A stretch of DNA of 62,632 nt from a virus. The position numbers and the translations under genes were made by a program. The stretch is taken from positions 1-62,632 of the IMG/VR virus record IMGVR_UViG_3300029319_009000; one strand, 5' to 3'. Below the pieces are notes generated by a model. It was not told the origin of the DNA. It ran no database searches and saw nothing but the letters and a program-made list of their open reading frames with translations. This document shows positions 36,118-57,619 of the stretch, piece after piece; position 1 is the first letter of the stretch; the number at the start of each line of letters is the position of its first letter.

Positions 36118-36140
36118 ATATAATTAGTGCTTAATTATAT
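36118..36140 (-). repeat. AT-rich inverted repeat at the sigma-factor stop
   Basis: ATATAATTA (36118-36126) pairs with TAATTATAT (36132-36140) around a 5-base loop. It spans the stop codon of the gp55-like gene and sits just before the ATG of the 94-residue gene, which lacks a ribosome site. It could be a weak hairpin affecting translation or RNA processing. Confidence 0.45.
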
Positions 36141-36815
36141 TTCTCCACGATTCCATTTCTTTTTAAATACCCTATATCTAACTCTCATTTTGTTTAAATT
36201 ATTAACGACTTGTTTTGTGTTTAAGCCTGTAATCTCTCTGATGTAAAAGTAGATTGCTTTTTTATTGTAGATGTCGATGCAATCTGGTGAAGACAATAGC
36301 ATGCGAATTGCTTCATACACTTTTTCTTCATTAGGCTTCATTGTAATTGCCTTTTCCCAATGATTTATTTCTTTCCACAGATGAGTCCAAAATTCTTTTT
36401 CTACCCTCTTAGAATAATATTCGTTTTCAACTGTTAATTTTGATAAATCTATGTTTTTTGGCAGGTCGTCTATCTGCACTTCTCTTTGATTGCTTTGATT
36501 TGTTTTTCTTACCTTGTGAATAAACCAGTTCTTTGTAATTACTGAGAAGTATGAAAAGGCTTTGGATCCTTTATTTGGATCGTATTTATCCAAAATAGTT
36601 GTAAGCCAAATTTTACACTCGTCCTTGAGGACATCGATGTTTGGAAGGTTTGTAAACCTGTAGGTATAAATAATCTTGTCCACCATCTCGCTGAAGGCTG
36701 GCTCGATGTATTCTATGTAAAGCTCTGTTCTTATTTTAATATCGTCAGTTCTTGCATACTGTACGATTGCATCTTCGTGGACTTGTGTGAAATATAGGTT
36801 CTTTTTTTTAGTCAT
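36135..36815 (-). CDS. Late-transcription sigma factor, T4 gp55-like
   Basis: A 226-residue divergent sigma70-family protein. The central block DKYDPNKGSKAFSYFSVITK, followed by NWFIHKVRK, is the region 2-like core of gp55-family late sigma factors, where the K/R-rich end binds the -10 element. The remainder includes a helical C-terminal part (VNNLNKMRVRYRVFKKKW). In T4 this factor recognises TATAAATA and needs gp33 and the gp45 clamp; neither is in this window. One base separates it from the upstream gene's stop, and no clear Shine-Dalgarno is present. Its presence implies a dedicated late promoter class, which I could not identify convincingly. Confidence 0.85.
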   Translation of the reverse strand: MTKKKNLYFTQVHEDAIVQYARTDDIKIRTELYIEYIEPAFSEMVDKIIYTYRFTNLPNIDVLKDECKIWLTTILDKYDPNKGSKAFSYFSVITKNWFIHKVRKTNQSNQREVQIDDLPKNIDLSKLTVENEYYSKRVEKEFWTHLWKEINHWEKAITMKPNEEKVYEAIRMLLSSPDCIDIYNKKAIYFYIREITGLNTKQVVNNLNKMRVRYRVFKKKWNRGEI

Positions 36816-37362: not shown

Positions 37363-37566
37363 TTACTCCTCTATTCCCCCTACCTCTTCAACACCCATCT
37401 TTACTAGCGGGGGATTTTTAACAAAAAGCTCTGCTTCGCCGTCCTCAGTTTCTGCTGCCGCAACAAACTCAAAACCTTTGAGGACTGGGACAATATCTGA
37501 TTGTTCCAAGAGGCTTTTTTGAAGAGCCATCATTACGGCTCCAACTGCTTGATCTGATAAATTCAT
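37363..37566 (-). CDS. Small conserved hypothetical phage protein
   Basis: The frame is open upstream to 37587, but the better start is ATG 37566: AAGGAG lies 8 bases before it, while the upstream ATG lies in the end of gmd without a ribosome site. This gives 67 residues beginning MNLSDQAVGAVMMALQKSLL. It has a short amphipathic helix then a strand-rich acidic part (FEFVAAAETEDGEAELFV). It overlaps the gmd 3' end by 4 bases. It looks like a small virion-assembly or regulatory protein; no function is known to me. Confidence 0.7.
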   Translation of the reverse strand: MNLSDQAVGAVMMALQKSLLEQSDIVPVLKGFEFVAAAETEDGEAELFVKNPPLVKMGVEEVGGIEE

Positions 37567-38537
37567 TGTTTTAACTCCTTTTGCCATTTTTCTATCATTT
37601 CTTCTAACATTGTCTCAAATGTATATTCTGGTTTCCATCCTAAAATTTCTCTTGCCTTACTAGAATCACCTTTTAAATATTTTAATTCTTCAGGTCTCAT
37701 AAATTTTGGATTTTGCACAACATAATCTTTGTAATTCATTCCTAGTTTTTGAAATACAACTTCGCACAATTGTCTAACCGAATGAGTTTCACCTGTTGCA
37801 ACAATAAACTCGTCTGGTGTTTTGTGATTAATGATCTTGTGCATTGCCCGAACATAGTCCTTTGAATGACCCCAGTCTCTGTAGGAGTCCATATTACCAA
37901 GCTCAAGCTTATCTTGCATTCCGTTTTTAATCATTACAGCCGCTTTAACAACCTTGTTAGTGACAAAGTTTGTCCCTCTTCTAGGAGACTCATGATTAAA
38001 CAAAATTCCATTGCAAGCATGAAGACCATAAGCTGCCCTATAGTGCCTGACCAAATTAAAACCCATGACCTTTGCACACCCATATGGGCTGACCGGTGTC
38101 ATTGGTGTTGTCAACCTCTGAATTCCATCGTCGTCTACAGAATTCCCAAACATTTCAGAAGAACTAGCTTGATAGAATTTTGCCTCTGGGCATGTATCTT
38201 TATACACTTCTAATATATTTAAAACACCCAGAGCATTTGTTTGTATTGTAAATGATGGCATATCAAAACTAACCCTTACATGACTCATCGCAGCCAGATT
38301 ATATATTTCATCAGGTTTAACTTGATTGAAGATTCTATACAGCGATGGAACATCTAACATGTCTCCATAAAAAGTATAGACATCATCCGATATGTGATTG
38401 ACTCTAGAATTTTGATTTTCTGCTACGGAGTGTCTCCTCACAACTCCATAGACATCATATCCAAGGGATAAAAGGTGTTCAGACAAATAGCTACCATCTT
38501 GACCGTTTATACCAGTTATTAAAGCTTTTTTTCCCAT
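37563..38537 (-). CDS. gmd: GDP-mannose 4,6-dehydratase
   Basis: A 324-residue short-chain dehydrogenase that converts GDP-D-mannose to GDP-4-keto-6-deoxy-D-mannose, using bound NADP. The N-terminus TGINGQDGSYLSEHLL is the Gmd nucleotide-binding signature. The catalytic triad is visible as S/T near SSSEMFG (125-131) and Y152xxxK156 in SPYGCAK. RRGTNFVTNK and E-L-G-N-M-D-S-Y-R-D-W-G-H are family hallmarks. It is the last gene of the glycan island. No GDP-fucose synthase is in this window, so the keto sugar probably goes to the DegT aminotransferase two genes upstream (GDP-perosamine-type product). SD AAGGAA. Confidence 0.95.
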   Translation of the reverse strand: MGKKALITGINGQDGSYLSEHLLSLGYDVYGVVRRHSVAENQNSRVNHISDDVYTFYGDMLDVPSLYRIFNQVKPDEIYNLAAMSHVRVSFDMPSFTIQTNALGVLNILEVYKDTCPEAKFYQASSSEMFGNSVDDDGIQRLTTPMTPVSPYGCAKVMGFNLVRHYRAAYGLHACNGILFNHESPRRGTNFVTNKVVKAAVMIKNGMQDKLELGNMDSYRDWGHSKDYVRAMHKIINHKTPDEFIVATGETHSVRQLCEVVFQKLGMNYKDYVVQNPKFMRPEELKYLKGDSSKAREILGWKPEYTFETMLEEMIEKWQKELKQ

Positions 38538-39254
38538 TTATTTTCCTTGTTTTTTGCAAACAAAAATAATCCTATGATCTTTTTCAGTTGCTGTGCTGTT
38601 AAAATCTCTGAAATTATATATGCCTTCTACACTAACATTGTTTTGCTTCATTAATTCAATCAATAATTTAGGAGACCACAAAGTAGTAAATATTTCAACT
38701 TCCTTTTCATCATATGATATCACAGTTTTACACAAAGATTCAATTAAATTTATATTAGTTTTATAAATTATTTTTTTGTCACCTACAAGCTTTTCTGAAT
38801 ATGCGTGTGGCTTATCTATAGAACAAGCTATACTATTCCAGCAATCAAATATAATTTTCCCTTCTTCTTCTAGCATGTTTGCACAATCTTCAAAGAAGCA
38901 AGACAATTCTTTTAAGTTATCAATGTGATTAACGATATTGAACATTGCTATGGCTGCGTCATATTTTTTATTTTTTTTAAAATGATCTTTAAGAGATTCA
39001 CAGTGAAAAGATAAATTTTTTGTTTTGTTATATTTTTCTCTTGCTTTGTCAATCATGCCACAAGATATATCTATTCCCGTAATAGATCTCTTTTGATTGC
39101 TCGCTAATATACTTGAGTGCACACCGGTTCCACATCCAATATCTAATATTTCTATTCTTTTTCCCAAAACAGATTCAATAAATTTACACTCTCTATCGTA
39201 ATCTTTGGAAGAATATAAGAAATCATAGTCATTCGACACTTTATTGTAGTCCAT
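38538..39254 (-). CDS. SAM-dependent methyltransferase, likely sugar N-methyltransferase
   Basis: A 238-residue class-I methyltransferase. Motif I is ILDIGCGTGVHS (residues about 35-46), followed by GIDIS for the acidic loop and a later IIFDCWN strand. The overall pattern (DYDFLYSSKDYDRECKFIESVL at the start and an E-F-T-T-L-W-S-like block near the end) resembles small methyltransferases acting on amino sugars in nucleotide-sugar pathways. Sitting between gmd and a DegT aminotransferase (14-base overlap with the latter), it probably N-methylates the 4-amino sugar. O-methylation or lipid substrates are not excluded. Confidence 0.8.
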   Translation of the reverse strand: MDYNKVSNDYDFLYSSKDYDRECKFIESVLGKRIEILDIGCGTGVHSSILASNQKRSITGIDISCGMIDKAREKYNKTKNLSFHCESLKDHFKKNKKYDAAIAMFNIVNHIDNLKELSCFFEDCANMLEEEGKIIFDCWNSIACSIDKPHAYSEKLVGDKKIIYKTNINLIESLCKTVISYDEKEVEIFTTLWSPKLLIELMKQNNVSVEGIYNFRDFNSTATEKDHRIIFVCKKQGK

Positions 39255-40350
39255 AATAGTCTCTTATTGTTTTGCAAACATATTCAACCTTTTCGTTGTC
39301 CATGGAGGGATACGAAGGAAGACATATGCCATTCTTGTACAACTTAACAGAAGTTTGCATATCGCCATCTAAGTACCCACGACTATCATCTAATTTTGAA
39401 AAACAAGGCTGCAAATGCAGAGGATAAAAAAATGTTCTAGTTTCTATATTGTTTTTTTCCATATGATCCATAAGCCCTTGCCTTCCATTGCTGTCTGTTA
39501 TGGCAACTCGGAAAGGAACATGATTTGATCCTTTTTCTGGCTGGTGAATCTTTATTTTTTCTATATCTTGTAAATTATTTTTGTATATTTCTAATATCTC
39601 TAGTTTACGATCTATGATTTGCGGAAGCTTACCAAACTGGGCGATCCCTATAGCAGCCTGTATATCTGTTATTCTAAAATTAAATCCAATTTCTGGGTGT
39701 ATAAATGAGCCTCGATTTATCCTTCCTTGGTTCCGAATGTATAACAATTTTTCGTATGTTTTTTCATCATTGGTGCAAACAAATCCCCCCTCACCTGTAG
39801 TAATTGTTTTGTCTGCAAAAAAAGAAAAGCTTCCAACATGACCCAAGCTTCCGCAGTGATCTCCCTGCCAGTTTACACCGATGGCTTGAGCTGCATCTTC
39901 TACTATTTTTAAGCCATTTTTTTCTGAAAATTCTTTTATTTTTTTCATATTTGCACTTGTACCATATATGTGTACAGGCATAATCGCTTTGGTTTTTTCA
40001 GAGATTTGTCTTTGGGCTTTTTCTAGATCTATGTGGAATGTTTCCTCCTCAACATCCACAAATACAGGTGTGGCTCCAGTCATTATAACAGAATTAGCAG
40101 ATGCAATAAAAGTAAAATTAGGAACTAAAACTTCGTCTCCGGGTCCAATGTTCAAAGATCTTAAAGCCATATACAAAGAGAGTGTTCCATTGTTTGCAAA
40201 AACACCGTATTTGCACCCGATTAAATCCAGTAATTTATCTGAGAATTCTTTGCATAACTTTCCTTCAGTTATCCACTTTGTATCAAAACATTGCTGTATT
40301 GCTTGATACTCTTCCTGCCCTATTGATGGTTCAAATTGAGAAACTCTCAT
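39241..40350 (-). CDS. DegT/DnrJ/EryC1 sugar aminotransferase, perosamine-synthase-like
   Basis: A 369-residue PLP enzyme that puts an amino group on a nucleotide keto-sugar. PLP lysine K181 sits in SFFADKTITTGEGG; the acidic ring-nitrogen contact is in EDAAQA (151-156); G-x-A-N-N-G-T-L-S-L at the start is the phosphate-binding loop. Pairing with Gmd suggests GDP-4-keto-6-deoxymannose as substrate and GDP-perosamine as product, as for Per/RfbE. Because a UDP-sugar 4,6-dehydratase is also in the island, a UDP-keto-sugar substrate is an alternative. AGAGG precedes the ATG. Confidence 0.88.
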   Translation of the reverse strand: MRVSQFEPSIGQEEYQAIQQCFDTKWITEGKLCKEFSDKLLDLIGCKYGVFANNGTLSLYMALRSLNIGPGDEVLVPNFTFIASANSVIMTGATPVFVDVEEETFHIDLEKAQRQISEKTKAIMPVHIYGTSANMKKIKEFSEKNGLKIVEDAAQAIGVNWQGDHCGSLGHVGSFSFFADKTITTGEGGFVCTNDEKTYEKLLYIRNQGRINRGSFIHPEIGFNFRITDIQAAIGIAQFGKLPQIIDRKLEILEIYKNNLQDIEKIKIHQPEKGSNHVPFRVAITDSNGRQGLMDHMEKNNIETRTFFYPLHLQPCFSKLDDSRGYLDGDMQTSVKLYKNGICLPSYPSMDNEKVEYVCKTIRDYYGLQ

Positions 40351-40353
40351 ATT

Positions 40354-41001
40354 TTATGCACCTCTTTTATTATAATACGACCCAACAGTAAACGACTTTC
40401 CTGTTGTTGCTGAAGTTTTTGAATACTTTTCATCGTACTTACTTACTGGCAATACTCTGAAGTCTATTGAAACTCTGGTTGTACCTGTCGTATTTATTTT
40501 GTTTCCGTGGCGAAGGGTGCCTCCACTAAACTGAAATATGTCTCCGTGTTTCATTGTGATTGGTTTATAGTCGCCAGCCATTGGTGCACTCTCCACCCAA
40601 ACTGCGTTTGTATCGTAACAGTCTGTTAGTGGTAAAATAAAATTATGCTCTCCTTGGGGGTGATTGTACCCTTCTTGTGTGTCAACATGAAACTCTGGTG
40701 TTGCCCAATTATTAACTAAGTGAACCCTTAGTGTTGGCATTTTTTGAAAAACAAAATCTTCACCAACTATTGGAAATATCACTTCTTCAATAATATTGTT
40801 GTATATACTTAAAAGACTTCCCTCTGATCTAAGATTTTGATAGAATCTATCATGCAAAATAGTGTCAGAGTTGTTACTCATATCAAATTTATCAAACGAA
40901 TATTCTTTGTGAAGATTGTCCAAACTGTTAGTGGTTTGAAATACCTTTTGCATCTCTTCGTACAATCCATACGCTTTTGCATTAAAATTGTGTATCTTCA
41001 T
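40354..41001 (-). CDS. 2-oxoglutarate/Fe(II) dioxygenase-like, StrG-type
   Basis: A 215-residue double-stranded beta-helix enzyme. The facial triad is visible: H105xD107 in EFHVDTQ and H165 in GGTLRHG, with R176 in TTRVSIDFRV as the likely 2-oxoglutarate anchor. The block MPTLRVHLVNN, then LPLTDCYDTNAVWVES, resembles StrG-type proteins of aminoglycoside and polysaccharide clusters as I recall. It could hydroxylate a sugar or glycan intermediate. It overlaps the cupin gene upstream by 4 bases and lies 3 bases before the aminotransferase, consistent with a joint pathway. The chemistry is inference. Confidence 0.78.
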   Translation of the reverse strand: MKIHNFNAKAYGLYEEMQKVFQTTNSLDNLHKEYSFDKFDMSNNSDTILHDRFYQNLRSEGSLLSIYNNIIEEVIFPIVGEDFVFQKMPTLRVHLVNNWATPEFHVDTQEGYNHPQGEHNFILPLTDCYDTNAVWVESAPMAGDYKPITMKHGDIFQFSGGTLRHGNKINTTGTTRVSIDFRVLPVSKYDEKYSKTSATTGKSFTVGSYYNKRGA

Positions 41002-41420
41002 TTGGCACTCTCATCAATATCCTTCTTGTCTTTTAGCATACCATAATAAGGACCATTTTTAAACTCATAAAGCCTAGTATCGTCCTCCAAGACCTCAAAG
41101 CAGTGCCCAGCATTAAAAGCTACAACACAGTCGCCAGATTTCAATACATGATCTGAGTATAGCGTGTCATCGATGTCATAGAATTTTGCGTGTATTTTTC
41201 CGTCTAAAATAACCCACGCTTCTTGTGTTTGAACAGTGTTTCTCTCTAGTGGAAGATGCTTGTGAGGTTTGAAAAAATCTGTTTTTTTTAATTTTTTACA
41301 TGATGCTTGCAAGCATTCTGTTTCTGGTGATAGGTCTTTTCTTTTTTCTTCTATAGAGTCATATTCGTTTATTACATACAATAATATACTTTTGTCAACT
41401 TTTGAAAAAAACTTTTTCAT
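40998..41420 (-). CDS. WbuC-like cupin protein
   Basis: A 140-residue small beta-barrel. The line KPHKHLPLERNTVQTQEAWV (51-70) with H53, H55 and E67, and the later GHCFEVLEDDTRLYEFKNGPY with H106, match WbuC-type cupins found in O-antigen clusters. Those proteins carry a metal site but their reaction is unknown to me; isomerisation or a scaffold role has been suggested for similar cupins. It overlaps the GT10 gene upstream by 4 bases and the dioxygenase downstream by 4 bases. Assignment by pattern; role unknown. Confidence 0.8.
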   Translation of the reverse strand: MKKFFSKVDKSILLYVINEYDSIEEKRKDLSPETECLQASCKKLKKTDFFKPHKHLPLERNTVQTQEAWVILDGKIHAKFYDIDDTLYSDHVLKSGDCVVAFNAGHCFEVLEDDTRLYEFKNGPYYGMLKDKKDIDESAK

Positions 41421-42292
41421 TTATTTATCACCCTCTCTAGTACAGGCCACATATTGTACCTATCTAGTATTAATTTTCTTGCTTTTCTAATATCATCAAT
41501 CCTAGATTCATAATCATCTTGTTCAATAAATTTGGCAACATCCTCAACTACCTGCTGGTGATCCTTTGTTATATCAATTTTTAAAAATGATTTTTTTGGA
41601 AAGTATTTTTCTAAGTCAGCACCACCCCAATATATGGGAACACACCACCTTAATATTGCATCTGTAAATTGAGTTCCAAAAAAGTCTCTTGCTATATCTT
41701 GGTTATCAAAAGCTAATGTGTATTTATACGAATCTAAAGCATTTGTTTTATCATTGTTATCTAGCTCTTTATTAGCATACCTAATTGGTCCATATAAATC
41801 TAGCAAATTTGGACACAAAGACATAAACTTTCCCAAAAAGTCGTGCCTTAAAACATGACCATAAGTCATTCTCTTATCGCTCTGAACACAACTTAGTATA
41901 TCACTTTTTTTTGGTGGGGTTTGTTCTTTTTTTAACTGATCATATGTAAGACCGATGCCTCCGCTGGACTTATTAGGATACCACCACTTAGTCCACAATA
42001 TATTTGTCCCATCCCAAAATGAATTTCTACTGACTTGGCTTGGAGGATAGAATTGTTGTATTTGTGGCGTCATGGCTTCTCTAGAAAAATATAATATTTT
42101 TTCTTTTTCAAACCTTTGAATTAGATGTGGATCGCACTGATCTTGGACTACCACATAGTCCGCCTCGTTTTCATCTACGGTATATGTTATATTTGACCAC
42201 ACACCACTATCGTTTGGAGATTGCTTAATGTAGTCTTGTACCATCTGTTCTGATGTGAGACCCCAATTTGGGGCAAAGTATATTTTTTTCAT
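41417..42292 (-). CDS. GT10 alpha-1,3-fucosyltransferase-like glycosyltransferase
   Basis: A 291-residue GT-B enzyme of the GT10 family. The donor-binding motif is Y189KYTLAFDNQ, followed by F-G-T-Q-F-T-D-A-I-L-R-W-C-V-P-I-Y-W-G-G (205-224), which corresponds to the family YVTEKxxDAxxxGxVPIYWG block. GT10 enzymes normally transfer L-fucose from GDP-fucose. No GDP-fucose synthase is in this window, so the donor may be another GDP-6-deoxy sugar made by Gmd plus the aminotransferase, or host GDP-fucose. The Y/V-T-E-K part is replaced by F-F-G-T-Q, which may reflect altered donor choice. Ribosome site is weak. Confidence 0.85.
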   Translation of the reverse strand: MKKIYFAPNWGLTSEQMVQDYIKQSPNDSGVWSNITYTVDENEADYVVVQDQCDPHLIQRFEKEKILYFSREAMTPQIQQFYPPSQVSRNSFWDGTNILWTKWWYPNKSSGGIGLTYDQLKKEQTPPKKSDILSCVQSDKRMTYGHVLRHDFLGKFMSLCPNLLDLYGPIRYANKELDNNDKTNALDSYKYTLAFDNQDIARDFFGTQFTDAILRWCVPIYWGGADLEKYFPKKSFLKIDITKDHQQVVEDVAKFIEQDDYESRIDDIRKARKLILDRYNMWPVLERVINK

Positions 42293-42318: not shown

Positions 42319-43116
42319 TTACTCATATAGTCTATAATGTGAGTAAGTGTTATTTAATTCAATCTCTTTTTGACCAACAAATCTATCCCATATTCTGCGG
42401 TCTTTTGTTCCGGGTGAAGGATTTAGGTCCTTTCCCCACCAACTCCTTGTTATTTTCCAATCCCTTGGCATGCAATACTTAGATATCTTAATATCAACAT
42501 CTAAAGAATTTAAATAATTCATCCAAGTATTTTCAGTATTATGAGATCTTTTAGTTTCATAAAAGTGATTATAAAATTGACAAACTTTATCAATTTTTTT
42601 ACTATCAGAAAAACACAAAATGTCGCTTGCACTACCCAAGAATACTTGACATATCCAAAGAAATTGTGTTTTTTCTATTTCATTACAAAATAAACCATTA
42701 TAGTAGATAATGTCTGGTCTACTCATAACAACTACATCATATTCAAAGTCATTATTTTTTTCATGCTCTTTTTTTAATTCATTAACCTTGTACTTGCTAT
42801 ATTGAGAGTATAGTACGCCCTCCTCACATTGATTATGAAATATAGTTTTATTAGGATTTTTAATATCTTGCTCTTCAACTAGCATATTTACCGGCTTATA
42901 TATCGATTTTATTTTATCTATATCGATTGGACAGTTGTCTACTTTTAGATATCCATCATGCCAAGTTGGGGTTTGAGGCTCTAAATAATTCCAAGTATGT
43001 ATAAACACATCACATTCATACTTGTCTTTTAAATTATTTTTTAAAAAGCTAAACGACTGATGCGTGAAGCCATAACTCCTCATATGACCAAAAAATAAAA
43101 AAGCTAATTTTTTCAT
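42319..43116 (-). CDS. Putative glycosyltransferase
   Basis: A 265-residue protein starting MKKLAFLFFGHMRSYGFTHQ, followed by CDVFIHTWNYLEPQTP. This opening (hydrophobic strand, G-H-x-R, then D-V-F-I-H-T-W) is what I know from putative glycosyltransferases in capsule and O-antigen clusters. VVMSRPDIIYY (around 140) supplies a D-x-D-like acidic strand end and is typical for that group. No characterised family member comes to mind. It overlaps the GDPD-like gene by 4 bases. Function as a glycosyltransferase is likely but not proven. Confidence 0.65.
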   Translation of the reverse strand: MKKLAFLFFGHMRSYGFTHQSFSFLKNNLKDKYECDVFIHTWNYLEPQTPTWHDGYLKVDNCPIDIDKIKSIYKPVNMLVEEQDIKNPNKTIFHNQCEEGVLYSQYSKYKVNELKKEHEKNNDFEYDVVVMSRPDIIYYNGLFCNEIEKTQFLWICQVFLGSASDILCFSDSKKIDKVCQFYNHFYETKRSHNTENTWMNYLNSLDVDIKISKYCMPRDWKITRSWWGKDLNPSPGTKDRRIWDRFVGQKEIELNNTYSHYRLYE

Positions 43117-43559
43117 ATTATGTAATCTTCTATGCCCAAAATAAAGTCAGAACAAACTCCCGCCACACAGCTCTTTATTTGCCAATTTGCTCTTTCGGGC
43201 ATAACACATATAGAGTTTTCAGTCAAGTACTTTCCGGGATAAGTCCAAATATACCCATCACTTGTGAGCGTAGCATCATCTGTATTATGAAAAAAGCATC
43301 TTACATTATTTTTCATTAGGAATTGTAAGGCTTCTATGTTTTTACAATGACACCAAAATTTATCATTTTTTAGAAAGCTTAAATCTACTAAATGCTCAGG
43401 CATATCATGACCTAAGTATAACTTATTTTCTATTAGCCAAACATCAATTTCTACATCAAAGCCTTCTTTTAGTGCCTCCACAATGTAAGATGGATGATTC
43501 TCGTATCTTTGATTTGGACCTTTAATGTTGCCTCGATGAGATATTGATTTAAACTTCAT
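43113..43559 (-). CDS. Glycerophosphodiester phosphodiesterase-like protein (short)
   Basis: A 148-residue protein with the N-terminal GDPD signature: HRGN at residues 8-11, E21 in YENHPSYI, EIDVW at about 37-41 and LYLGHDMP at about 48-55. These supply the H/E/D/H set of the TIM-barrel active site. True GDPD enzymes are about 240 residues or longer; this is a short variant lacking the C-terminal half of the barrel, so activity is doubtful. Similar short forms appear in surface-polysaccharide clusters as I recall. It overlaps the cupin gene upstream by 11 bases and the putative glycosyltransferase by 4. Confidence 0.75.
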   Translation of the reverse strand: MKFKSISHRGNIKGPNQRYENHPSYIVEALKEGFDVEIDVWLIENKLYLGHDMPEHLVDLSFLKNDKFWCHCKNIEALQFLMKNNVRCFFHNTDDATLTSDGYIWTYPGKYLTENSICVMPERANWQIKSCVAGVCSDFILGIEDYII

Positions 43560-43869
43560 ATTTGTCCCCCGGAACTGATGGAGACTTTATGCAAATCACT
43601 TCACAGTCTTCAAGAAAAACTGGGTCTGCTACTTCTCCCGGATAAACAATGAATATGTCACCAGCTACTAATTCTTCATTGCACATTTTCATCCGACCTC
43701 TTATGAGTAAATTAATTTCTGTCCCTATTTTGTGCATATGCTTTTGCCAAATTTCTCCCTTTGGGTGAACCTTGTAGCAAACTTCAAAATCTTCACTTTT
43801 AAAAGCAGTTGGTTCGAAATTACCCACAAACCAGCCTGCCTTCATGTTTTCTATTCTAAGTTTTTTCAT
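43549..43869 (-). CDS. Small cupin protein
   Basis: The best start is ATG 43869; the frame extends to a TTG at 43887 that has no ribosome site. This gives a 106-residue cupin: EVCYKVHPKGEIWQKHMHKIGTE with the H-x-H/E metal set, G-R-M-K-M, then L-V-A-G-D-I-F-I-V-Y-P-G-E. It lies 58 bases downstream of the RuBisCO-like gene and overlaps the GDPD-like gene by 11 bases. Because cupins often isomerise, epimerise or hydrolyse sugar derivatives, it may act on the product of the RuBisCO-like enzyme. That coupling is inference from order only. Confidence 0.75.
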   Translation of the reverse strand: MKKLRIENMKAGWFVGNFEPTAFKSEDFEVCYKVHPKGEIWQKHMHKIGTEINLLIRGRMKMCNEELVAGDIFIVYPGEVADPVFLEDCEVICIKSPSVPGDKYEV

Positions 43870-43927
43870 GACTTTATATCGCTCCAATCTACATCAAAAA
43901 ATTTTATGCTCAATTGAACGGTGTTCA

Positions 43928-45115
43928 TTAAATCTTTCCCCATTTCTCAATTGCTTGATAATATTCTTCTCCGTATTCTTTATCAATACTTTGGCGCATA
44001 GCTTTTGCCCCGCCAAGAGATCCTCCGGGGTGTCCATGTATCGCACCGCCCACATTAGCCATGTAATCAACTCCAAACCTTTCGTTAATTGCATCGATCA
44101 AACCGGGATGCATTCCGCAACTAAGTGCTGGCAATACTCCATGATTAGTTAAAATATCAAGGGTTGCCTTTAAGTCTTCCTCATTATCGGACAGATACCC
44201 TCCCCACATTCCAGCATGAATAAAATCCACACCCATAAGACCAGCTAGATCACACAATACATCCCAAGCTATATTAAAGTCATGGTTTTTGTTAGTTAGA
44301 ATTTTATCTCCGCTTTTTTGAAAGTGTACAAACAATGGAAGGTCCAATTCTCTAATTGACTTATACACCCCAAGCCCACTCCAAAAGTTAATATGAACAG
44401 CATTACCGCCAAGTTCATGCACCCTTTTAACCCTATCAATGACGTGCATAGCGTCAGAGTTTATACAAACAGCATAAACAACATTCTTATCCTTAAGATA
44501 ATCCATTATCATAGGTACCCTAACTTCAATTGGACAGATGGCAGGATTAGCCATGATTTCATCTTCTTTAATGAAGTTAACTCCTCCTTCAACCATCTGC
44601 TTAACCATTTCAAGCAATACCTCTGGGGTTACTCCGATTTTTGGCTTTACAATGCCTCCAAACAAAGGCTTGTCATGACATTTAGTAAACTCTCTAATTC
44701 CACTAATTCCAAACTTAGGACCAAGGAAGTATTTTTCTTTTACTGTTTCTGGTATGTCAAGCTTTAAAAGTTGGCATTTTTCAAAGATATCAATATCTAA
44801 TTGACCGCCCATAAGCTGACATAGCAGATGTGATATGCCGTCTGTTTCAAAGTCTGTATTTACAATCGGAAAGGCTATCGTTACTTTTCCTTCTGTTAGT
44901 TTTTCTAGCTCTTCTTCATCACCAACTATCATGCAGGAATGATTTTCAAAAAGTTCATCTGTTTCCCACGAATTTCTAACATTTGGATTCCCCACAGATT
45001 GACCAACAGCTAATCCCCATGCAGCATCACGAAGTGTTGTCTTAGATTTAATATTATAATCGGCAATAATATACTTGTTTTTATCTAGATTTTCATTTTT
45101 TCTAAAAAGATTCAC
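43928..45115 (-). CDS. RuBisCO-like protein (form IV-type), inside a glycan island
   Basis: A 395-residue member of the RuBisCO large-subunit family. Kept: K157 and K159 in GIVKPKIG, the carbamate/metal set K183, D185 and E186 in FIKEDE, H264 and H300 (RuBisCO H294 and H327), S332 in SCGMHPG and the phosphate-loop segment GGAIHGHPGG. Lost: loop-6 K334 is Y307 (GGYLSD), N123 is Gly (LMGGQL) and R295 is Phe (VHFQ). These changes exclude normal CO2 fixation and put it among RuBisCO-like proteins, whose known members act as enolases, isomerases or transcarboxylase/decarboxylases on sugar-like phosphates. GTG start (45115) with AAGGAG. It overlaps the nucleotidyltransferase gene by 1 base. The substrate is unknown. 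Confidence 0.92.
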   Translation of the reverse strand: MNLFRKNENLDKNKYIIADYNIKSKTTLRDAAWGLAVGQSVGNPNVRNSWETDELFENHSCMIVGDEEELEKLTEGKVTIAFPIVNTDFETDGISHLLCQLMGGQLDIDIFEKCQLLKLDIPETVKEKYFLGPKFGISGIREFTKCHDKPLFGGIVKPKIGVTPEVLLEMVKQMVEGGVNFIKEDEIMANPAICPIEVRVPMIMDYLKDKNVVYAVCINSDAMHVIDRVKRVHELGGNAVHINFWSGLGVYKSIRELDLPLFVHFQKSGDKILTNKNHDFNIAWDVLCDLAGLMGVDFIHAGMWGGYLSDNEEDLKATLDILTNHGVLPALSCGMHPGLIDAINERFGVDYMANVGGAIHGHPGGSLGGAKAMRQSIDKEYGEEYYQAIEKWGKI

Positions 45116-45852
45116 TAGTTATTCTCCTTATCTTTTTCCAATAGAATTAGGAAGTCTTCAAGCTCTTCCGGTGTTCCCATGCCTCTCCACTCGTAGACTG
45201 GATATGGTATTACTTTACCATTTTCTACATGTATTAATTCATTATAAACTGGACAGACGTAAAATTCATTATTAAATCTAATATTTTTTCTGATCATTGA
45301 TTTAGCATTTTCAACATATGACGCTCCTGTCTTCCAATAATACACACCAACAGTCGCCAAATTACTAATAACTTGTTTTTCAGCAACTTGAGTTACATTC
45401 TTAGTATTATAGTTTATTTTTGCGTATGAATATTTTGGACTATCAGACAGGAAATATGGGATAGCACCATCGCACTCTTGTTTTCTGACAAAATTTATAA
45501 AATGATTACCATCCCAATCTATCCACTGGTCTGAATTGCAAATAAGTAATTCTTGATCATTATCAATAAATTCTTCCGCTAGAAGGGCTGTACAGGCCGC
45601 ACCTTCGGTTAAGCCATCAGTCAAAACTATTTCTACATCGGGCTTTAAATCTCTTAATTCTTTTTCAAAATATGGATATTTTTCAAGGTGTCCTTTTTGT
45701 AAAATAAAAATATATTTTCCTTCTAAATTAATATTATCTACGACTCTTTTGATCATAGGTATACCATCAACTAAAATTAGAGGCTTTGGTCTCTCAAAGC
45801 CTTCTTTCGCAAATCTACTTCCGGCTCCCGCCATTGGTATTAAAATATTCAT
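45115..45852 (-). CDS. Sugar-phosphate nucleotidyltransferase
   Basis: A 245-residue GT-A-fold nucleotidyltransferase that joins a sugar-1-phosphate to a nucleotide. The signature is IPMAGAGSRFAKEGF, followed by R-P-K-P-L-I (residues 5-25); LICNSDQWIDWDG (near 128-140) carries the metal-binding acidic pair. The ending (P-V-Y-E-W-R-G-M-G-T-P-E-E-L) matches dTDP/CDP/UDP-sugar pyrophosphorylase-like enzymes in surface-glycan clusters. It directly abuts the RuBisCO-like gene (1-base overlap), so it probably activates a sugar made by it or for it. Nucleotide and sugar specificity cannot be read. SD AAGGAA. Confidence 0.88.
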   Translation of the reverse strand: MNILIPMAGAGSRFAKEGFERPKPLILVDGIPMIKRVVDNINLEGKYIFILQKGHLEKYPYFEKELRDLKPDVEIVLTDGLTEGAACTALLAEEFIDNDQELLICNSDQWIDWDGNHFINFVRKQECDGAIPYFLSDSPKYSYAKINYNTKNVTQVAEKQVISNLATVGVYYWKTGASYVENAKSMIRKNIRFNNEFYVCPVYNELIHVENGKVIPYPVYEWRGMGTPEELEDFLILLEKDKENN

Positions 45853-45862
45853 ATTATATTCC

Positions 45863-46723
45863 TTAAATCATTTCTAAAATTTCTTCTATGGTGAATTTAT
45901 CTGCTTCGGAAGAATCTTTGCCATCTTCTAGTATTTTTTCATGAAGATTTTCTCCGGGCTGAAGCCCTATTTCTTTAATTTTCAATTGTTTTCCGGGTGG
46001 TAAGTATTTTTCTGCCATGGCTTGAAGAAGGTCTCCAACGCTCATTGATTTCATTTCTGGTACGTATGGGCTGCAATTAGATGCTTTGTTCATGCACTCA
46101 AATATTAGATCTACTGCCTGATTTACTGTCCAAAAATATCTTGTCGCAGACGGGTCTGTAACGATAACCTCCCTACCTTCTTGAAGAAGTTTTTTCCATT
46201 TACATAGCACTGAACCTGTTGAGTATAGCACATTTCCATATCTCAATATTCTATATTTAATATTAGGATAATTTCTTTCAAATTGCAAGAACATTCTTTC
46301 CATTAAATACTTTGTTGCCCCGTATACTCCATTTACTTGCGCTGCCTTGTCTGTGCTAATTCCAACTACAAACTCTATATTGTTTTTGGATGACTGCTCT
46401 AATATATTTAAAGATCCCAAAATATTAGACCTTACGCACTCTCTTGTCTGAACCTCTGATATTCCTACATGCTTAAAAGCCGCTAAATGAAATATCCCTG
46501 TAACACCCTTCATTGCCTGATGCACGTCGAAAGGATCGCATATATCTCCTGTGTATATTTCTACAGTTGGAAATTCTTGCTTTAACTCAATTAATTTACC
46601 CTCATCTCGTGCAAGAACAACTACAGAGCCGCCAGAATTAATAATTCTTCGGATTAATTCTGCTCCAAGAAAACCACTTCCTCCAGTTACCAAATACCGA
46701 TTGCCTTTTTCAATATTTATCAA
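45863..46723 (-). CDS. CapD/PseB-like nucleotide-sugar 4,6-dehydratase
   Basis: A 286-residue extended short-chain dehydrogenase. The N-terminus has the NAD(P) loop TGGSGFLGAEL. The catalytic part is VGISTDKAAQVNGVYGATK, where the S-T-D-K-A replaces the usual S/T-Y-xxx-K environment, as in UDP-GlcNAc inverting 4,6-dehydratases (PseB, FlaA1, CapD). The later RYGNVLYSTGSV and VTDPSATRYF are also typical. The first codon is TTG (46723) with AAGGGTG upstream. It probably makes a UDP-4-keto-6-deoxy hexose, giving the island a second keto-sugar besides the Gmd product. Confidence 0.9.
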   Translation of the reverse strand: MINIEKGNRYLVTGGSGFLGAELIRRIINSGGSVVVLARDEGKLIELKQEFPTVEIYTGDICDPFDVHQAMKGVTGIFHLAAFKHVGISEVQTRECVRSNILGSLNILEQSSKNNIEFVVGISTDKAAQVNGVYGATKYLMERMFLQFERNYPNIKYRILRYGNVLYSTGSVLCKWKKLLQEGREVIVTDPSATRYFWTVNQAVDLIFECMNKASNCSPYVPEMKSMSVGDLLQAMAEKYLPPGKQLKIKEIGLQPGENLHEKILEDGKDSSEADKFTIEEILEMI

Positions 46724-46744: not shown

Positions 46745-47527
46745 TTATTTCCTTCCAGAATCACTGCCATCTAAGTGCGATATAATTTTTTCATCATGGC
46801 TTGACCCATAGTTGTATATGCCCCATTTCTTATGGGCACTGTCAAAACCCAAAATAGAGATGTCTTTTTTATAAAAGAGATTTAAATTATATTCAACTAT
46901 TCCAGTTATTCCATCTCTATTAATTGCAGCATATTTTACCCAATCTTTTTTAAATTTATCAACTCTTAGAATATGTGGATGTGTCGCTATGCAGTCCGTT
47001 TTCATAAAATAATGATCGTTAATGTTTTGCTCTTCAACATATGTTTCCCAAAAATCCTCATCCCCAACTTCTGGGTTGTCAATATGAGCCAACTGATTTT
47101 TTCTTTTATTAAATCTAACAAAATTTATCTCGTCTGTTTTGTGCATGGCTGTTAAAAGCTTTGCAGTATCTATATTTCTTAAGAAATTCCAATCATGCTC
47201 ACAAAAAAGGACATATGGAGTAGTGCTTGAGTAAACAGCCCTAACATAGTTATCTCTTAAACCTGTATTAAGAAATCCGCTGTGCCTACATTCTTTAATT
47301 TCTATGTTCTCTATTTTTTTAAGATTCTTTATATATTCTTTGTGGTTAACATTGTCAATGTCGCTATCACAATAAACAATAAATTTGCACTCATTAATAT
47401 TGGAAAATCTTTTTCTTATAGATGATATGGTTGATTCAATGACCGCAACAGAAGGTGCAGACGGAAGAACGTGTGTTGTTATTACAACCGTTAAAAGATC
47501 TTTAAGTTTTTGGTTGTTGGCTCTCAC
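46745..47527 (-). CDS. Putative GT-A glycosyltransferase
   Basis: A 260-residue protein beginning with LTVVITTHVLPSAPSVAVIE, then a strand FIVYCDSDID and TPYVLFCEHDWNFL; the order is that of GT-A (GT2-like) enzymes, with C-D-S-D and E-H-D as possible metal-binding acids. The C-terminus (WGIYNYGSSHDEKIIS) has no homologue that I recognise. It overlaps the 3' end of the large fused glycosyltransferase gene by 26 bases. Probably transfers a sugar in the island pathway; donor unknown. Confidence 0.65.
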   Translation of the reverse strand: MRANNQKLKDLLTVVITTHVLPSAPSVAVIESTISSIRKRFSNINECKFIVYCDSDIDNVNHKEYIKNLKKIENIEIKECRHSGFLNTGLRDNYVRAVYSSTTPYVLFCEHDWNFLRNIDTAKLLTAMHKTDEINFVRFNKRKNQLAHIDNPEVGDEDFWETYVEEQNINDHYFMKTDCIATHPHILRVDKFKKDWVKYAAINRDGITGIVEYNLNLFYKKDISILGFDSAHKKWGIYNYGSSHDEKIISHLDGSDSGRK

Positions 47528-49517
47528 TTCCTATCTCACAAATCATTCTAACATCAACTTTGTCTTTATCTTCGTTTCTGTTAATTTTCATCTTTTTTAC
47601 AACTTCTATACCAGCAAATTTTACACCAAAAAGATAAAAATGTTTAGAAGGATTGTGAATAATTTCATGTCTAGTGTCCGAATAATGCTTCTCTTCTTCG
47701 TTGTGGCAAGAAATGTCTGTACTTAAATATCCTATATTTTTTTTGTGTAAAAAATCTATATCTCTGCAATCTCTTAGCCCATATGCACTAAGGACTGCGC
47801 TTGAATCTACGCAAAAATCGCCTTTATCTTGTCTATTATCAACGATGTTTTTGTATGTTCTAAAGAAGTCATCAAACTTGTTTGTTTCTGACCAAACTCT
47901 ATAATTTAACATGTGTACACTATTTTGATTATATATACTAGATGCTATTCTCCAAGTTTCCGCTTGTGTATCATTGATGTGAACAGAGTGTTTTCCGTTG
48001 CCACATAGTTCTCTTATATTTTCTTTTAAAACATCTAAATTTGACCTATTTTCCTCTTCGACCAAAAGAGTTGCGACAACATTTCCTTCGGTAAAACAAT
48101 ATGATTTTTTTTCAATTACTCCGGGTAGACCCTGCTCTTTTGTACCAATCCAAGGTTCACCATAGTATAGGTTGTGTATGTAATTTTTTTGACCTTGATC
48201 TGTTAATTCAACAGACTTTTCATAAACAACATTTACACTTTCGTTGATCAAATCTTTGATTTTTTGAATATCGACATCATGGGATGGAAACAAACTTATA
48301 GTATAAAGATTATCTTTATTTCTGCAAAATTCTAATGCCATTTCATCGGCATAATCTCTTCTAAGACCTTCTTTAACAATGTCCTTTTTATTTAAAAAAT
48401 AATTTGCTGTGCAATCTATCTGTCCTTTTGAAATGTCAGATTCTTCAGATAAAACATTTTTACCTAATGCGATGCAAGATGCGATTCTATGAGCACCATT
48501 AATTGCTAATCCCTTAATTGTTGGAATTTTGCCATGAGATTCTTCAAAGCCATTGTCTTTTAGAGACTGTATGGTCTCTTCAAAGGATTCTAAAAAGTCT
48601 TTCTGTCCATCTTTGGGAGGATCTTTTTCTACAAAACCATTCCAAACTTCCAAATGATGAAGATATAAATCTTTTGCAAAATCTGATTGATTGTTGTTTA
48701 ATATGCTCTTTGCATAAATTGTCTTTGCTGCAATATCAAATCTGTTAAATCTAAGAAAATCACTTGCTTTTTTATAATCTTGTAGCGGCTTATATTTTTC
48801 TTTTGATCTAATTTCCTTTTCTAATTTGACCTGATATGTGTTGTCAACCTTGTGATCGTTTAGTGGATTTACAAGATTGTATGCATATAGCATGTCTTTC
48901 ACATAATGACTTTTATAAGAAGACATCTCTAACATTGGAAACATAAAAGCAAGATCCCAAGCCATTCTGTAAAAGTTTCCTTCTGTATCTAAGAAATCTT
49001 CTTTTTTAATTTTGCTCCAAAGAAAATATTTAAATGTCCTCAAGTGAGAAGAGCACCACTCTGATTCTCTAAAGGCGTTATTTCTAATAACACTCTCGGG
49101 GATTTGTCTTGCAAACTTTCCCCTTTGCTTAGATGGATATTCAATGTAACTTCCATATGTCATCCAGCATTTTTTTTGATTGTAAATGTCATTAAGTTTT
49201 GTTAAAACATCAGCACTAGCAAACCAATCATCTCCATCAAGTGTTACAATAATGTCTTCTTGTTTGGGATTAGAATATTCAATTCCATCATAAATGTTTT
49301 TTAAAGCAAAAGACTTTTCTTCTCTGTTTATTAAAACAAAGTTGTCTTTTCCCTCTATTTCTTTTTCAATAATCTCTCTTGTCGAGTCTGTCGATATATC
49401 ATTCAACAATATGCACTGATAATTTTTATATTTTTGTGCCATCACAGACCTGATGCATAATTTGATATATTTTTCTACATTATAAAATGGTATGATTATT
49501 TTAAAGTGATTCTCCAA
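47502..49517 (-). CDS. Multidomain glycosyltransferase (GT2 plus ParB-like and unknown C-terminal domains)
   Basis: A 671-residue protein. Residues 1-220 form a GT2 domain: FKIIIPFYNVEKYIKLCIRS, then VTLDGDDWF with the metal D-x-D-D at 94-97. The middle (around 335-360) has GLAINGAHRIASCIALGK, the G-x-H-R-x-x-A signature of ParB/sulfiredoxin-type nucleotide-binding domains. The C-terminal part (around 560-600) reads VDSSAVLSAYGLRDCRDIDF, a block I associate with nucleotidyltransferase-like proteins in surface-glycan clusters, with acidic D-S-S and D-I-D. Start is TTG (49517) with GGAG upstream. The fusion of transferase and ParB-like module is unusual; function beyond glycosyl transfer is unclear. 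Confidence 0.78.
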   Translation of the reverse strand: MENHFKIIIPFYNVEKYIKLCIRSVMAQKYKNYQCILLNDISTDSTREIIEKEIEGKDNFVLINREEKSFALKNIYDGIEYSNPKQEDIIVTLDGDDWFASADVLTKLNDIYNQKKCWMTYGSYIEYPSKQRGKFARQIPESVIRNNAFRESEWCSSHLRTFKYFLWSKIKKEDFLDTEGNFYRMAWDLAFMFPMLEMSSYKSHYVKDMLYAYNLVNPLNDHKVDNTYQVKLEKEIRSKEKYKPLQDYKKASDFLRFNRFDIAAKTIYAKSILNNNQSDFAKDLYLHHLEVWNGFVEKDPPKDGQKDFLESFEETIQSLKDNGFEESHGKIPTIKGLAINGAHRIASCIALGKNVLSEESDISKGQIDCTANYFLNKKDIVKEGLRRDYADEMALEFCRNKDNLYTISLFPSHDVDIQKIKDLINESVNVVYEKSVELTDQGQKNYIHNLYYGEPWIGTKEQGLPGVIEKKSYCFTEGNVVATLLVEEENRSNLDVLKENIRELCGNGKHSVHINDTQAETWRIASSIYNQNSVHMLNYRVWSETNKFDDFFRTYKNIVDNRQDKGDFCVDSSAVLSAYGLRDCRDIDFLHKKNIGYLSTDISCHNEEEKHYSDTRHEIIHNPSKHFYLFGVKFAGIEVVKKMKINRNEDKDKVDVRMICEIGSESQQPKT

Positions 49518-50369: not shown

Positions 50370-50828
50370 TTACTTTTCCTTATACATTCGGACATTTGTC
50401 CCAACTAGACCATCTACTAGGTCGCTAGAACTTTGAACTTTTCCGCCGCCAACACCCCAAATGAGATGGACGCCAAGTTCTTCTGCGACTGGAATTTCGG
50501 GGATATTGTCAGATGTTCTATCTCCTCCGTTGGCAAAAGCTACTTTGAAGTTGGGCCACAATGCACGAACTTGACGAAGCAAATCACAAGCAGAGTTGTC
50601 ATCATCATCAAAAGCCATAGCCTTAGAAACGCCTCGGGTGCCTTGGACCATCTCTACTCTTTCTGAGTGGGGCATGAAGATATACCCTTTCTTTCTCATT
50701 AGCCATTCATCAGAATTAACTCCGACTATAACTATTTCTGCCATCTTTGCTGATTCTTGAATCATTCGAAGGTGACCAACATGCATAGGATCGAATCCAC
50801 CGCTCAAAACCACAACATCGTAATACAT
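50370..50828 (-). CDS. Cytidylyltransferase-like protein (first paralogue)
   Basis: A 152-residue HIGH-type nucleotidyltransferase. The signature GGFDPMHVGH is at 10-19; NSDEWLMRKKG follows. FANGGDRT (around 98-105) and QSSSDLV near 135-141 match the later nucleotide-binding motifs of glycerol-phosphate and ADP/GDP-heptose nucleotidyltransferases. It probably activates a phosphorylated sugar or alditol for the island. A second, more degenerate copy lies at 58403-58870. SD CAGGTG. Confidence 0.82.
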   Translation of the reverse strand: MYYDVVVLSGGFDPMHVGHLRMIQESAKMAEIVIVGVNSDEWLMRKKGYIFMPHSERVEMVQGTRGVSKAMAFDDDDNSACDLLRQVRALWPNFKVAFANGGDRTSDNIPEIPVAEELGVHLIWGVGGGKVQSSSDLVDGLVGTNVRMYKEK

Positions 50829-56791: not shown

Positions 56792-57619
56792 ATGCGAAAG
56801 AAACTTACACTATTAGCCTTTTTATTATCATTAACTATTTTTTTGCCATCCTGTGTTTCGACTAATTTTGGATTTCATATCCCAGAAGACTCTAGGGATC
56901 AATTTGTAAGAATAATCCAACAAGCATATGTTAGTATATGCGCGGAAGAAGGGTGTGTAACCAATCCTTTGAGATCTAGTGGGTCTGGTGCGATAGTTGC
57001 AGAAAGCACAAAAGGATCATACATTTTAACTGCTGGTCATGTCTGTGAATTAGAAATTGAAAATATTGTGCGAACACCAGAAATGCTAAAAGCGATAAAT
57101 GGTATTGAAGTGCACATGTCAATAGTGAATTTATCTCAATCAAAATATAAAGCACAGATAGTATCTATTGACAATAATAGTGATTTATGCTTACTTTTTT
57201 CTAAAAATTACTGGAATGAAAAAGGTCCTGCTAAAATAGCTGATTCTCCCGTATTTGAAGGAGAAAGAGTCTATAATGTCGCAGCGCCGGTTGGCATATT
57301 TTATGAAGATGTTGTTCCGTTACTAGAAGGGTTTTATATGGGAAAGGATGGTTTGAAAGCTTATTATTCAATCCCTGCTATGGGTGGAAGCTCTGGTTCT
57401 CCAATATTTAATATCAGGGGTCACTTAGTGGGAATGATTCATTCTGTCAATGTTGCATTTCCTATGGTGTCTGTATCACCAACACAAAAAGAATTAAAAA
57501 AATTCCTTGAATCAAATATAAAGGCTCACAAAAAAGAACTAGCATACCTAGAAAGAGAAATGCGTTCCAAGAGAGATATTGAGCCTCTTTGGAAATTTTT
57601 AGGTTTAGATAGGATTTAG
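56792..57619 (+). CDS. Trypsin-like serine protease, lipoprotein
   Basis: A 275-residue protein on the plus strand. The N-terminus has a lipoprotein signal: R2-K-K4, a hydrophobic core and lipobox L-P-S-C with Cys21. The body is a trypsin-like fold: H83 in TAGHVC, D131 in NNSDLCLL and S201 in GGSSGSPIF form the catalytic triad. Three or more Cys in the first 60 residues may form disulfides, consistent with a periplasmic location. No Shine-Dalgarno precedes the ATG; TTAAGATATG is shared in part with the other plus-strand genes. The stop codon abuts tRNA-Leu on the other strand without a gap. It could process an envelope protein during infection or block superinfection; the target is unknown. 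Confidence 0.88.
   Translation: MRKKLTLLAFLLSLTIFLPSCVSTNFGFHIPEDSRDQFVRIIQQAYVSICAEEGCVTNPLRSSGSGAIVAESTKGSYILTAGHVCELEIENIVRTPEMLKAINGIEVHMSIVNLSQSKYKAQIVSIDNNSDLCLLFSKNYWNEKGPAKIADSPVFEGERVYNVAAPVGIFYEDVVPLLEGFYMGKDGLKAYYSIPAMGGSSGSPIFNIRGHLVGMIHSVNVAFPMVSVSPTQKELKKFLESNIKAHKKELAYLEREMRSKRDIEPLWKFLGLDRI

What the first reader, a model, noticed from the sequence alone, without database searches (positions are those of the whole stretch)
43928..45115. RuBisCO-like enzyme carried by a phage inside a glycan-building island
The protein is a clear RuBisCO large-subunit family member. It keeps the carbamate/metal residues (K183, D185, E186), K157/K159, both active-site His and the phosphate loop, but loop-6 K334 is Tyr, N123 is Gly and R295 is Phe. 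That predicts an Mg-dependent enolase, isomerase or decarboxylase-type reaction on a sugar-like phosphate, not carbon fixation. It is sandwiched between a nucleotidyltransferase (1-base overlap) and a cupin, suggesting an unknown route to an activated sugar. I do not recall a RuBisCO-like protein as part of phage glycan synthesis.
Basis: partly seen in the sequence, partly recalled or inferred. Interest (0 to 1): 0.88.

Follow-up and report, generated by a model that had tools for sequence, protein, structure and literature searches.

The report
RuBisCO-like enzyme in phage sugar cassette
A relative of the CO2-fixing enzyme RuBisCO that has lost the residues needed to fix CO2 is carried by hundreds of aquatic phage sequences in a small gene set that appears to make an activated sugar for surface decoration, a role not reported for this enzyme family in the papers I could search.

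Summary
The gene is real. It lies on the minus strand (43928-45115, 395 aa, GTG start) in a T4-like myophage fragment. It belongs to a distinct RuBisCO-like clade, separated with 100/100 support from forms I, II and III, MtnW and OiaX. Relatives were found in 351 viral contigs but in only 22 cellular genome contigs. All 112 clade members examined keep the carbamate/Mg triad, K175, K177 and P1 phosphate-loop residues. All replace K334 by Tyr, N123 by Gly, E60 by Gly and H294 by Gln, so carboxylation is not expected. The gene belongs to a conserved cassette: nucleotidyltransferase (84/91 viral loci), short GDPD-like metalloprotein (79/91) and cupin (65/91), often with a GT-A-like transferase. 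The same four genes are contiguous in Azospirillum and Elusimicrobia. In related phage cassettes without it, the nucleotidyltransferase goes with RpiB, a phosphomannomutase-like or other HAD enzyme, or RibB. Best reading: a non-carboxylating enolase/isomerase that prepares a phosphorylated keto-sugar for nucleotide activation and transfer to a surface glycan. Substrate, nucleotide and product are unknown. The clade may be the uncharacterised marine 'IV-GOS' group; this could not be tested.

The parts
43928..45115 (-). RuBisCO-like protein (RLP), 395 aa, GTG start
   Evidence: Pfam PF00016 111.8 bits; own clade at 100/100 support; active-site map
45115..45852 (-). NTP transferase (nucleotidyltransferase), 1-base overlap with the RLP
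   Evidence: PF00483 E 4.8e-11; family profile hits 4evw E 2.7e-35; present in 84/91 viral and 19/22 cellular RLP loci
43549..43887 (-). Small cupin (phrog_24762); the start is probably the internal ATG near 43869
   Evidence: PHROG E 8.4e-35; present in 65/91 viral loci
43113..43559 (-). Short GDPD-like metalloprotein (phrog_34507), 148 aa, with motif HR..EN..ExD..GHD
   Evidence: Profile vs GDPD 7e0v E 5e-4; AF2 pLDDT 96 but no PDB fold match at E<=0.001; present in 79/91 viral loci; longer GDPD-like ORFs lie near the RLP in L027 and L028
42319..43116 (-). GT-A-like putative transferase (GT6 family here)
   Evidence: AF2 model (mean pLDDT 72) matches GT-A folds, best E 6e-6; present in 37/91 viral loci
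45863..46723 (-). PseB/CapD-like SDR dehydratase (Polysacc_synt_2), wider island
   Evidence: PF02719 E 9e-65
41417..42292 (-). GT10 fucosyltransferase-like, wider island
   Evidence: PF00852 E 1.3e-10
37563..38537 (-). GDP-mannose 4,6-dehydratase-like, wider island
   Evidence: TIGR01472 364 bits, below its equivalog cut-off of 415
39241..40350 (-). DegT-type sugar aminotransferase (LegC/PseC-like), wider island
   Evidence: TIGR04181 E 6e-86, below cut-off
47502..49517 (-). GT2 glycosyltransferase, wider island
   Evidence: PF00535 E 5.8e-21
36135..36815 (-). Late sigma-factor-like protein, synteny anchor next to the island
   Evidence: phrog_234 E 6e-4; syntenic in L036, L037, L038, L040, L003 and L192

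Best explanation
The RLP is the precursor-preparing enzyme of a mobile nucleotide-sugar cassette. Using a carbamylated Lys183, Mg2+ held by Asp185/Glu186, and Lys157/Lys159, it would pull a proton next to the carbonyl of a monophosphorylated ketose, form an enediolate and reprotonate it elsewhere (isomerisation or epimerisation), with no CO2 step because loop-6 Lys334 is Tyr. The product phosphate would go to the adjacent NTP transferase, giving an NDP-activated keto-sugar or polyol-like unit, and a GT-A-like or LicD-like transferase would place it on a surface glycan. The cupin and the GDPD-like protein act on the same unit in steps not known. Shown by sequence: clade, retained and lost residues, cassette, alternative enzymes in the same setting. 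Inferred: all catalysis, the substrate class, the order of steps, and whether the glycan decorates the host or the virion.
For: (1) Carbamate/metal triad, K175, K177, S379, G381 and G403 are invariant in 112/112 clade members and G404 in 111; carboxylation residues are lost. (2) NTP transferase in 84/91 viral and 19/22 cellular loci, typically abutting or overlapping neighbouring genes. (3) Contiguous GDPD-like, RLP, cupin, NTP genes in Azospirillum (L030) and Elusimicrobia (L029), deep in the clade. (4) Alternative enzymes: the NTP family is fused to RpiB in cyanophage Bellamy (385 aa, PF02502 E 4e-32) and in 30 viral loci, none with RLP; 29 of these 30 keep the cupin and most keep the GDPD-like gene. 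It is fused to RibB in S-SKS1 (PF00926 E 5e-65) and to HAD_2 in S-CAM9 and B23. Among 80 cupin-defined viral loci, 55 have RLP; of the 25 without it, 24 carry a phosphomannomutase-like or other HAD enzyme, while only 5 of the 55 do. RpiB and RibB act on ribulose 5-phosphate-type ketoses through enediols (established knowledge). (5) In Legionella the minimal RLP+NTP pair lies beside a LicD gene.
Against: No biochemistry. N123G is shared with the decarboxylase OiaX, so a decarboxylation is open. H294, kept in MtnW, OiaX and all RuBisCOs sampled, is Gln. The nucleotide, sugar and role of the cupin and GDPD-like protein are unknown. Most alternative enzymes in cupin-defined loci are HAD enzymes, so they indicate precursor supply, not isomerisation as such. 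Loci are related to one another, so counts are not independent events. The RpiB set was fetched with a query that already holds the fusion, so RpiB presence there is by construction; what is informative is the rest of the cassette and the absence of RLP.
Confidence: 0.6

Rival explanations
1. The RLP is a decarboxylase (OiaX-like) acting on a 3-oxo sugar-acid phosphate, giving the ketose phosphate that the NTP transferase then activates.
For: N123 is Gly in both OiaX and this clade; in the careful tree the nearest neighbour of the clade is the OiaX/four-carbon-acid group, with weak support 82/53.
Against: NCBIfam OiaX model scores 131 bits against a cut-off of 700. OiaX keeps K334 and R295 and has Ala at K177; this clade has Tyr, Lys and Lys. 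No sugar-acid kinase or dehydrogenase was identified among the cassette genes.
Confidence: 0.2
2. It is part of methionine/MTA salvage, like the RLP-plus-cupin pair of the MTA-isoprenoid shunt (Rlp1 and methylsulfurylase) or MtnW.
For: A RLP with an adjacent-numbered cupin gene is the arrangement in Rhodopseudomonas palustris (RPA2169/RPA2170; PMC5893883); MtnW is the best PDB match by sequence.
Against: MtnW model 146 bits against a cut-off of 514; the MtnW sequences have Lys at N123 and the clade has Gly; separate clade at 100/100. The constant partner is an NTP transferase inside glycan islands, and no mtnA/mtnP was identified among the window ORFs scanned. DeepYkr Rlp1 itself was not knowingly in the tree.
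Confidence: 0.06
3. The RLP acts after activation, on an NDP-sugar or a phosphodiester-linked intermediate made with the GDPD-like protein, not on the free sugar phosphate.
For: The GDPD-like protein and LicD neighbours point to phosphodiester chemistry.
Against: The alternative enzymes in related cassettes (RpiB, phosphomannomutase-like, other HAD, RibB) are mostly sugar-phosphate-type enzymes, and P1 phosphate-loop residues are kept.
Confidence: 0.1
4. It is a true RuBisCO that boosts host carbon fixation during infection.
For: Family membership only.
Against: K334, N123, E60 and H294 are all replaced in 112/112 members; it falls outside forms I-III; no phosphoribulokinase or other Calvin-cycle gene was identified in the window.
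Confidence: 0.01

Closest known systems
MtnW, DK-MTP-1-P enolase (form IV-YkrW)
   Same: RuBisCO superfamily, Lys/Asp/Glu carbamate-metal triad, P1 phosphate-loop residues, non-carboxylating; best PDB sequence match
   Different: Separate clade; MtnW has Lys at position 123 and keeps H294, here Gly and Gln; K177 is present here and absent there; glycan cassette instead of methionine salvage
Rlp1 of R. rubrum/R. palustris (DeepYkr), MTRu-1-P 1,3-isomerase, paired with a cupin
   Same: Non-carboxylating RLP paired with a cupin; isomerisation of a ketose monophosphate is the working model here
   Different: No methionine-salvage partners found; constant partner is an NTP transferase; not knowingly included in the tree
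OiaX, 3-oxo-isoapionate-4-phosphate decarboxylase
   Same: Gly at position 123; nearest group in the tree (weak support)
   Different: Far below the OiaX model cut-off; K334, R295 and K177 differ; anabolic setting instead of apiose catabolism
IV-GOS / new Global Ocean Sampling RuBisCO homologues (Yooseph 2007 PMC1821046; group name in PMC10173188)
   Same: Environmental, largely marine, outside forms I-III; Yooseph lists N123, H327 and others as poorly conserved
   Different: Sequences not available here, so identity is untested; no host, neighbours or role given in the text read
NTP-RpiB, NTP-RibB and HAD-NTP fusion proteins of cyanophages (Bellamy gp206, S-SKS1, S-CAM9, B23)
   Same: Same NTP family; Bellamy and B23 also share GDPD-like and GT6-like neighbours, Bellamy the cupin
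   Different: RLP absent; a different sugar-phosphate-type enzyme is joined to the NTP domain

Membership tests
RuBisCO superfamily / RuBisCO-like protein (form IV in the wide sense) | RuBisCO large-subunit catalytic domain over the curated cut-off | tested here: met
   PF00016 111.8 bits vs 30.1
RuBisCO superfamily / RuBisCO-like protein (form IV in the wide sense) | Carbamate Lys plus Asp/Glu metal ligands kept, carboxylation residues lost | tested here: met
   K201/D203/E204 kept and K334/N123/E60 replaced in 112/112
Carboxylating RuBisCO (forms I-III) | K334, N123, E60, H294 present | tested here: not met
   Y307, G104, G38, Q266
Carboxylating RuBisCO (forms I-III) | Placement inside form I, II or III | tested here: not met
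   Own clade at 100/100 support
MtnW (YkrW) | NCBIfam equivalog cut-off (TIGR03332, 513.6 bits) | tested here: not met
   145.9 bits
MtnW (YkrW) | Lys at the N123 position, as in the MtnW sequences sampled | tested here: not met
   Gly in 112/112
OiaX | NCBIfam equivalog cut-off (NF042437, 700 bits) | tested here: not met
   131.5 bits
DeepYkr Rlp1 (MTA-isoprenoid shunt) | Placement with Rlp1 | not tested
   No labelled Rlp1 sequence was in hand; two other-IV sequences that join MtnW lie outside the clade
DeepYkr Rlp1 (MTA-isoprenoid shunt) | mtnA/mtnP in the genome | tested here: inconclusive
   None identified among window ORFs scanned, but the record is a 62.6 kb fragment and was not searched for them specifically
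IV-GOS clade | Placement with the GOS-only sequences of 2007 | not testable with these tools
   Sequences not held; Tabita 2007 not held
GDPD superfamily (short partner) | HR / E / ExD / HD metal-site residues | tested here: met
   H8 R9 E20 N21 E37 D39 H51 invariant in 27
GDPD superfamily (short partner) | Significant fold match to a solved GDPD | tested here: inconclusive
   TM 0.51 to 2pz0 but E 0.09; nothing at E<=0.001

The most novel reading that the evidence does not exclude
The clade catalyses a RuBisCO-superfamily reaction not yet described, making a ketose phosphate that is turned into a novel nucleotide-activated unit for surface glycans: a glycan-building role for the superfamily, spread mainly by phages and possibly explaining the orphan marine IV-GOS group.
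Probability: 0.5. Interest if true: 0.85.

Novelty: new variant of a known kind. Interest (0 to 1): 0.74.

Why it matters
Known RuBisCO-like proteins serve methionine salvage, apiose catabolism and a few other catabolic routes. A clade with its own invariant active site, tied to a nucleotidyltransferase in glycan islands and far more often met in viral contigs than in cellular genomes in these searches, would add an anabolic role and a likely new sugar nucleotide. It would also show how phages may build surface modules by exchanging one precursor enzyme in a constant cassette. Azospirillum and Legionella isolates carry it, so it is testable at the bench.

Tried and rejected
No isolated phage with the RLP was found (tblastn in 50,697 records). 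Plasmid RLPs among the best hits are at most 31% identical and, where annotated, mostly OiaX, MtnW or unnamed RuBisCO-family genes. Fold search of the GDPD-like model gave no significant match. Pfam gave nothing credible for the GDPD-like family and nothing for the GT6 proteins tried. A first tree mislabelled L103 and L108 as cellular and held a long branch (L034); it was replaced by a careful tree. An early label 'RpiB' for the C-terminal domain of some NTP proteins was wrong: those are small HAD phosphatase-like domains. Simple ORF calling missed cassette genes in GC-rich loci; tblastn repaired this. Literature searches for RLP with nucleotidyltransferase and polysaccharide, for viral RuBisCO with nucleotide sugars, and for cyanophage RpiB with nucleotidyltransferase returned nothing. 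No structure model of the RLP itself was made, because both jobs went to partner proteins.

Full report
Observation. The ORF at 43928-45115 is on the minus strand, 395 aa, GTG start. It matches RuBisCO_large at 111.8 bits (cut-off 30.1), and its relatives outside the clade, such as MtnW, OiaX and form III proteins, are at about 30% identity or less. The next gene upstream in the transcript, a nucleotidyltransferase, overlaps it by one base; a cupin, a 148-aa protein and a GT-A-like protein follow. The window is a 62.6 kb IMG/VR virus record with baseplate wedge, late-sigma-like, primase, RuvC-like, PhoH and ClpP genes.

Residues. On an alignment with forms I, II and III, OiaX, MtnW and 112 clade members, the clade keeps K175, K177, K201, D203, E204, S379, G381 and G403 in all members, G404 in 111, and H327 in 80 of 112. 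It replaces E60 by Gly, T65 by Asn, N123 by Gly, H294 by Gln, K334 by Tyr and G380 by Cys in all 112. R295 is Lys (86) or Ser (25) with one Arg, and H298 is mostly Asp or Ala. So the metal site and P1 phosphate-loop residues are kept, the CO2-handling loop-6 lysine is gone and the P2 site is rebuilt: a monophosphorylated substrate is the natural guess. Three residues in the P2/H327 region co-vary as K/D/H (77) or S/A/Q (25), which suggests two substrate subtypes.

Clade and spread. In a careful IQ-TREE run 32 clade members form one side of a branch at 100/100 against forms I, II, III, MtnW, OiaX and other RLPs. With the clade profile, members identified score about 350-660 bits (the 349-bit one is a 290-aa fragment) and other RuBisCO-family proteins at most about 250. 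An alignment-based scan found relatives in 351 viral contigs, of which the best 80 were kept at 58-75% identity; the scan threshold alone does not prove that every one of the 351 is in the clade. A genome-collection scan found 22 loci: SAR11, Legionella, Azospirillum, Elusimicrobia, Verrucomicrobia, Patescibacteria, DPANN archaea and others. That scan relied on two conserved peptides, so divergent members may be missed. In samples only 1 of 398 genomes of the Legionella phylum, 1 of 82 of the Azospirillum family, 1 of 289 of the Verrucomicrobia sample and 2 of 247 of the SAR11 family sample had it, the centre genome included each time, and 4 of 22 in the Legionella genus. No isolated phage has it. 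Eleven of twenty larger contigs carrying it have a Terminase_6N gene. Some of the cellular contigs are short and could be viral; others (L016, 232 kb; L026, 167 kb; the Legionella isolates) are not easily explained so.

Cassette. Counting same-strand neighbours within 3 kb by tblastn, 91 viral RLP loci have the NTP transferase in 84, the GDPD-like gene in 79, the cupin in 65 and GT6 in 37; 22 cellular loci have NTP in 19 and GDPD-like in 13, and two of the three without NTP are short contigs. Genes abut or overlap; median gaps to the commonest neighbours are -1 to -11. Azospirillum oleiclasticum and an Elusimicrobia MAG carry GDPD-like, RLP, cupin, NTP in one row. In L027 and L028 a longer GDPD-like ORF lies near RLP and NTP. 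In Legionella only RLP and NTP remain, beside a divergent LicD gene.

Alternative enzymes. Isolated cyanophages lack the RLP but carry the NTP, cupin and GDPD-like families in varying sets. There the NTP domain is fused to RpiB (Bellamy gp206; the same domain order in 30 viral contigs fetched with it, none with RLP), to RibB (S-SKS1) or to a HAD_2 domain (S-CAM9, B23). Among 80 viral loci defined by the cupin alone, 55 have RLP. Of the 25 without it, 24 have a phosphomannomutase-like protein (7) or another HAD domain, free or fused to NTP (17); of the 55 with RLP, only 5 do (with the label 'RpiB' there to be read as small HAD). So RLP and these enzymes tend to exclude each other in one cassette, which suggests that RLP supplies the phosphorylated precursor for the nucleotidyltransferase.

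Mechanism. RpiB and RibB work on ribulose 5-phosphate-type ketoses through enediols (established knowledge), and known RLPs (MtnW; Rlp1, PMC5893883) enolise or isomerise phosphorylated keto compounds; with the kept carbamate/Mg/K175/K177 set this favours an isomerase- or enolase-type step. The HAD alternatives say only 'precursor supply'. Decarboxylation as in OiaX remains possible. Nucleotide, sugar, acceptor, and the jobs of the cupin and the GDPD-like protein are unknown.

Chimaera. The late-sigma-like gene near the island is 52-62% identical and placed a few kb downstream in L036, L037, L038, L040, L003 and L192, and G+C of the island (34%) is close to the rest (37%). This makes it very unlikely that the island belongs to another DNA molecule.

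Known or new. Yooseph et al. 2007 (PMC1821046) report 65 ocean RuBisCO homologues outside all known forms; a later review names an IV-GOS group (PMC10173188). I found no paper in the searched library that links a RuBisCO-like protein to glycan synthesis or to phages in this way; subscription papers were mostly out of reach.

Noticed in passing
window 59965-61116 (-): Tubulin/FtsZ-like GTPase (PF00091 E 7.6e-9, TubZ-like C-terminal domain E 5.5e-5) in a T4-like phage fragment.
   Followed up: no
window 56792-57619 (+): Trypsin-like protease with a lipoprotein-like signal sequence, on the strand opposite to the long run of neighbouring genes.
   Followed up: no
RLP clade, residues K267/D270/H300 (window numbering): Two subtypes by P2-site residues: K/D/H (77) and S/A/Q (25), likely two substrates.
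   Followed up: partly
L020-L024, L026 (SAR11 contigs): Two NTP transferase genes flank the RLP, one on each side.
   Followed up: no
L186-L190 (cyanophages): NTP transferase fused to RpiB, RibB or HAD domains; Bellamy also has a protein with two NTP domains.
   Followed up: partly
window 43113-43559 (-): The 148-aa GDPD-like protein gives a very confident model (pLDDT 96) with no significant PDB fold match: a possible compact barrel of a new kind.
   Followed up: partly
window 50370-50828 (-) and 58403-58870 (-): A cytidylyltransferase-like protein (PF01467) and a second, similar-looking gene outside the island.
   Followed up: no
window 40998-41420 (-): WbuC-like cupin (TIGR04366, below cut-off), a second cupin in the island.
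   Followed up: no
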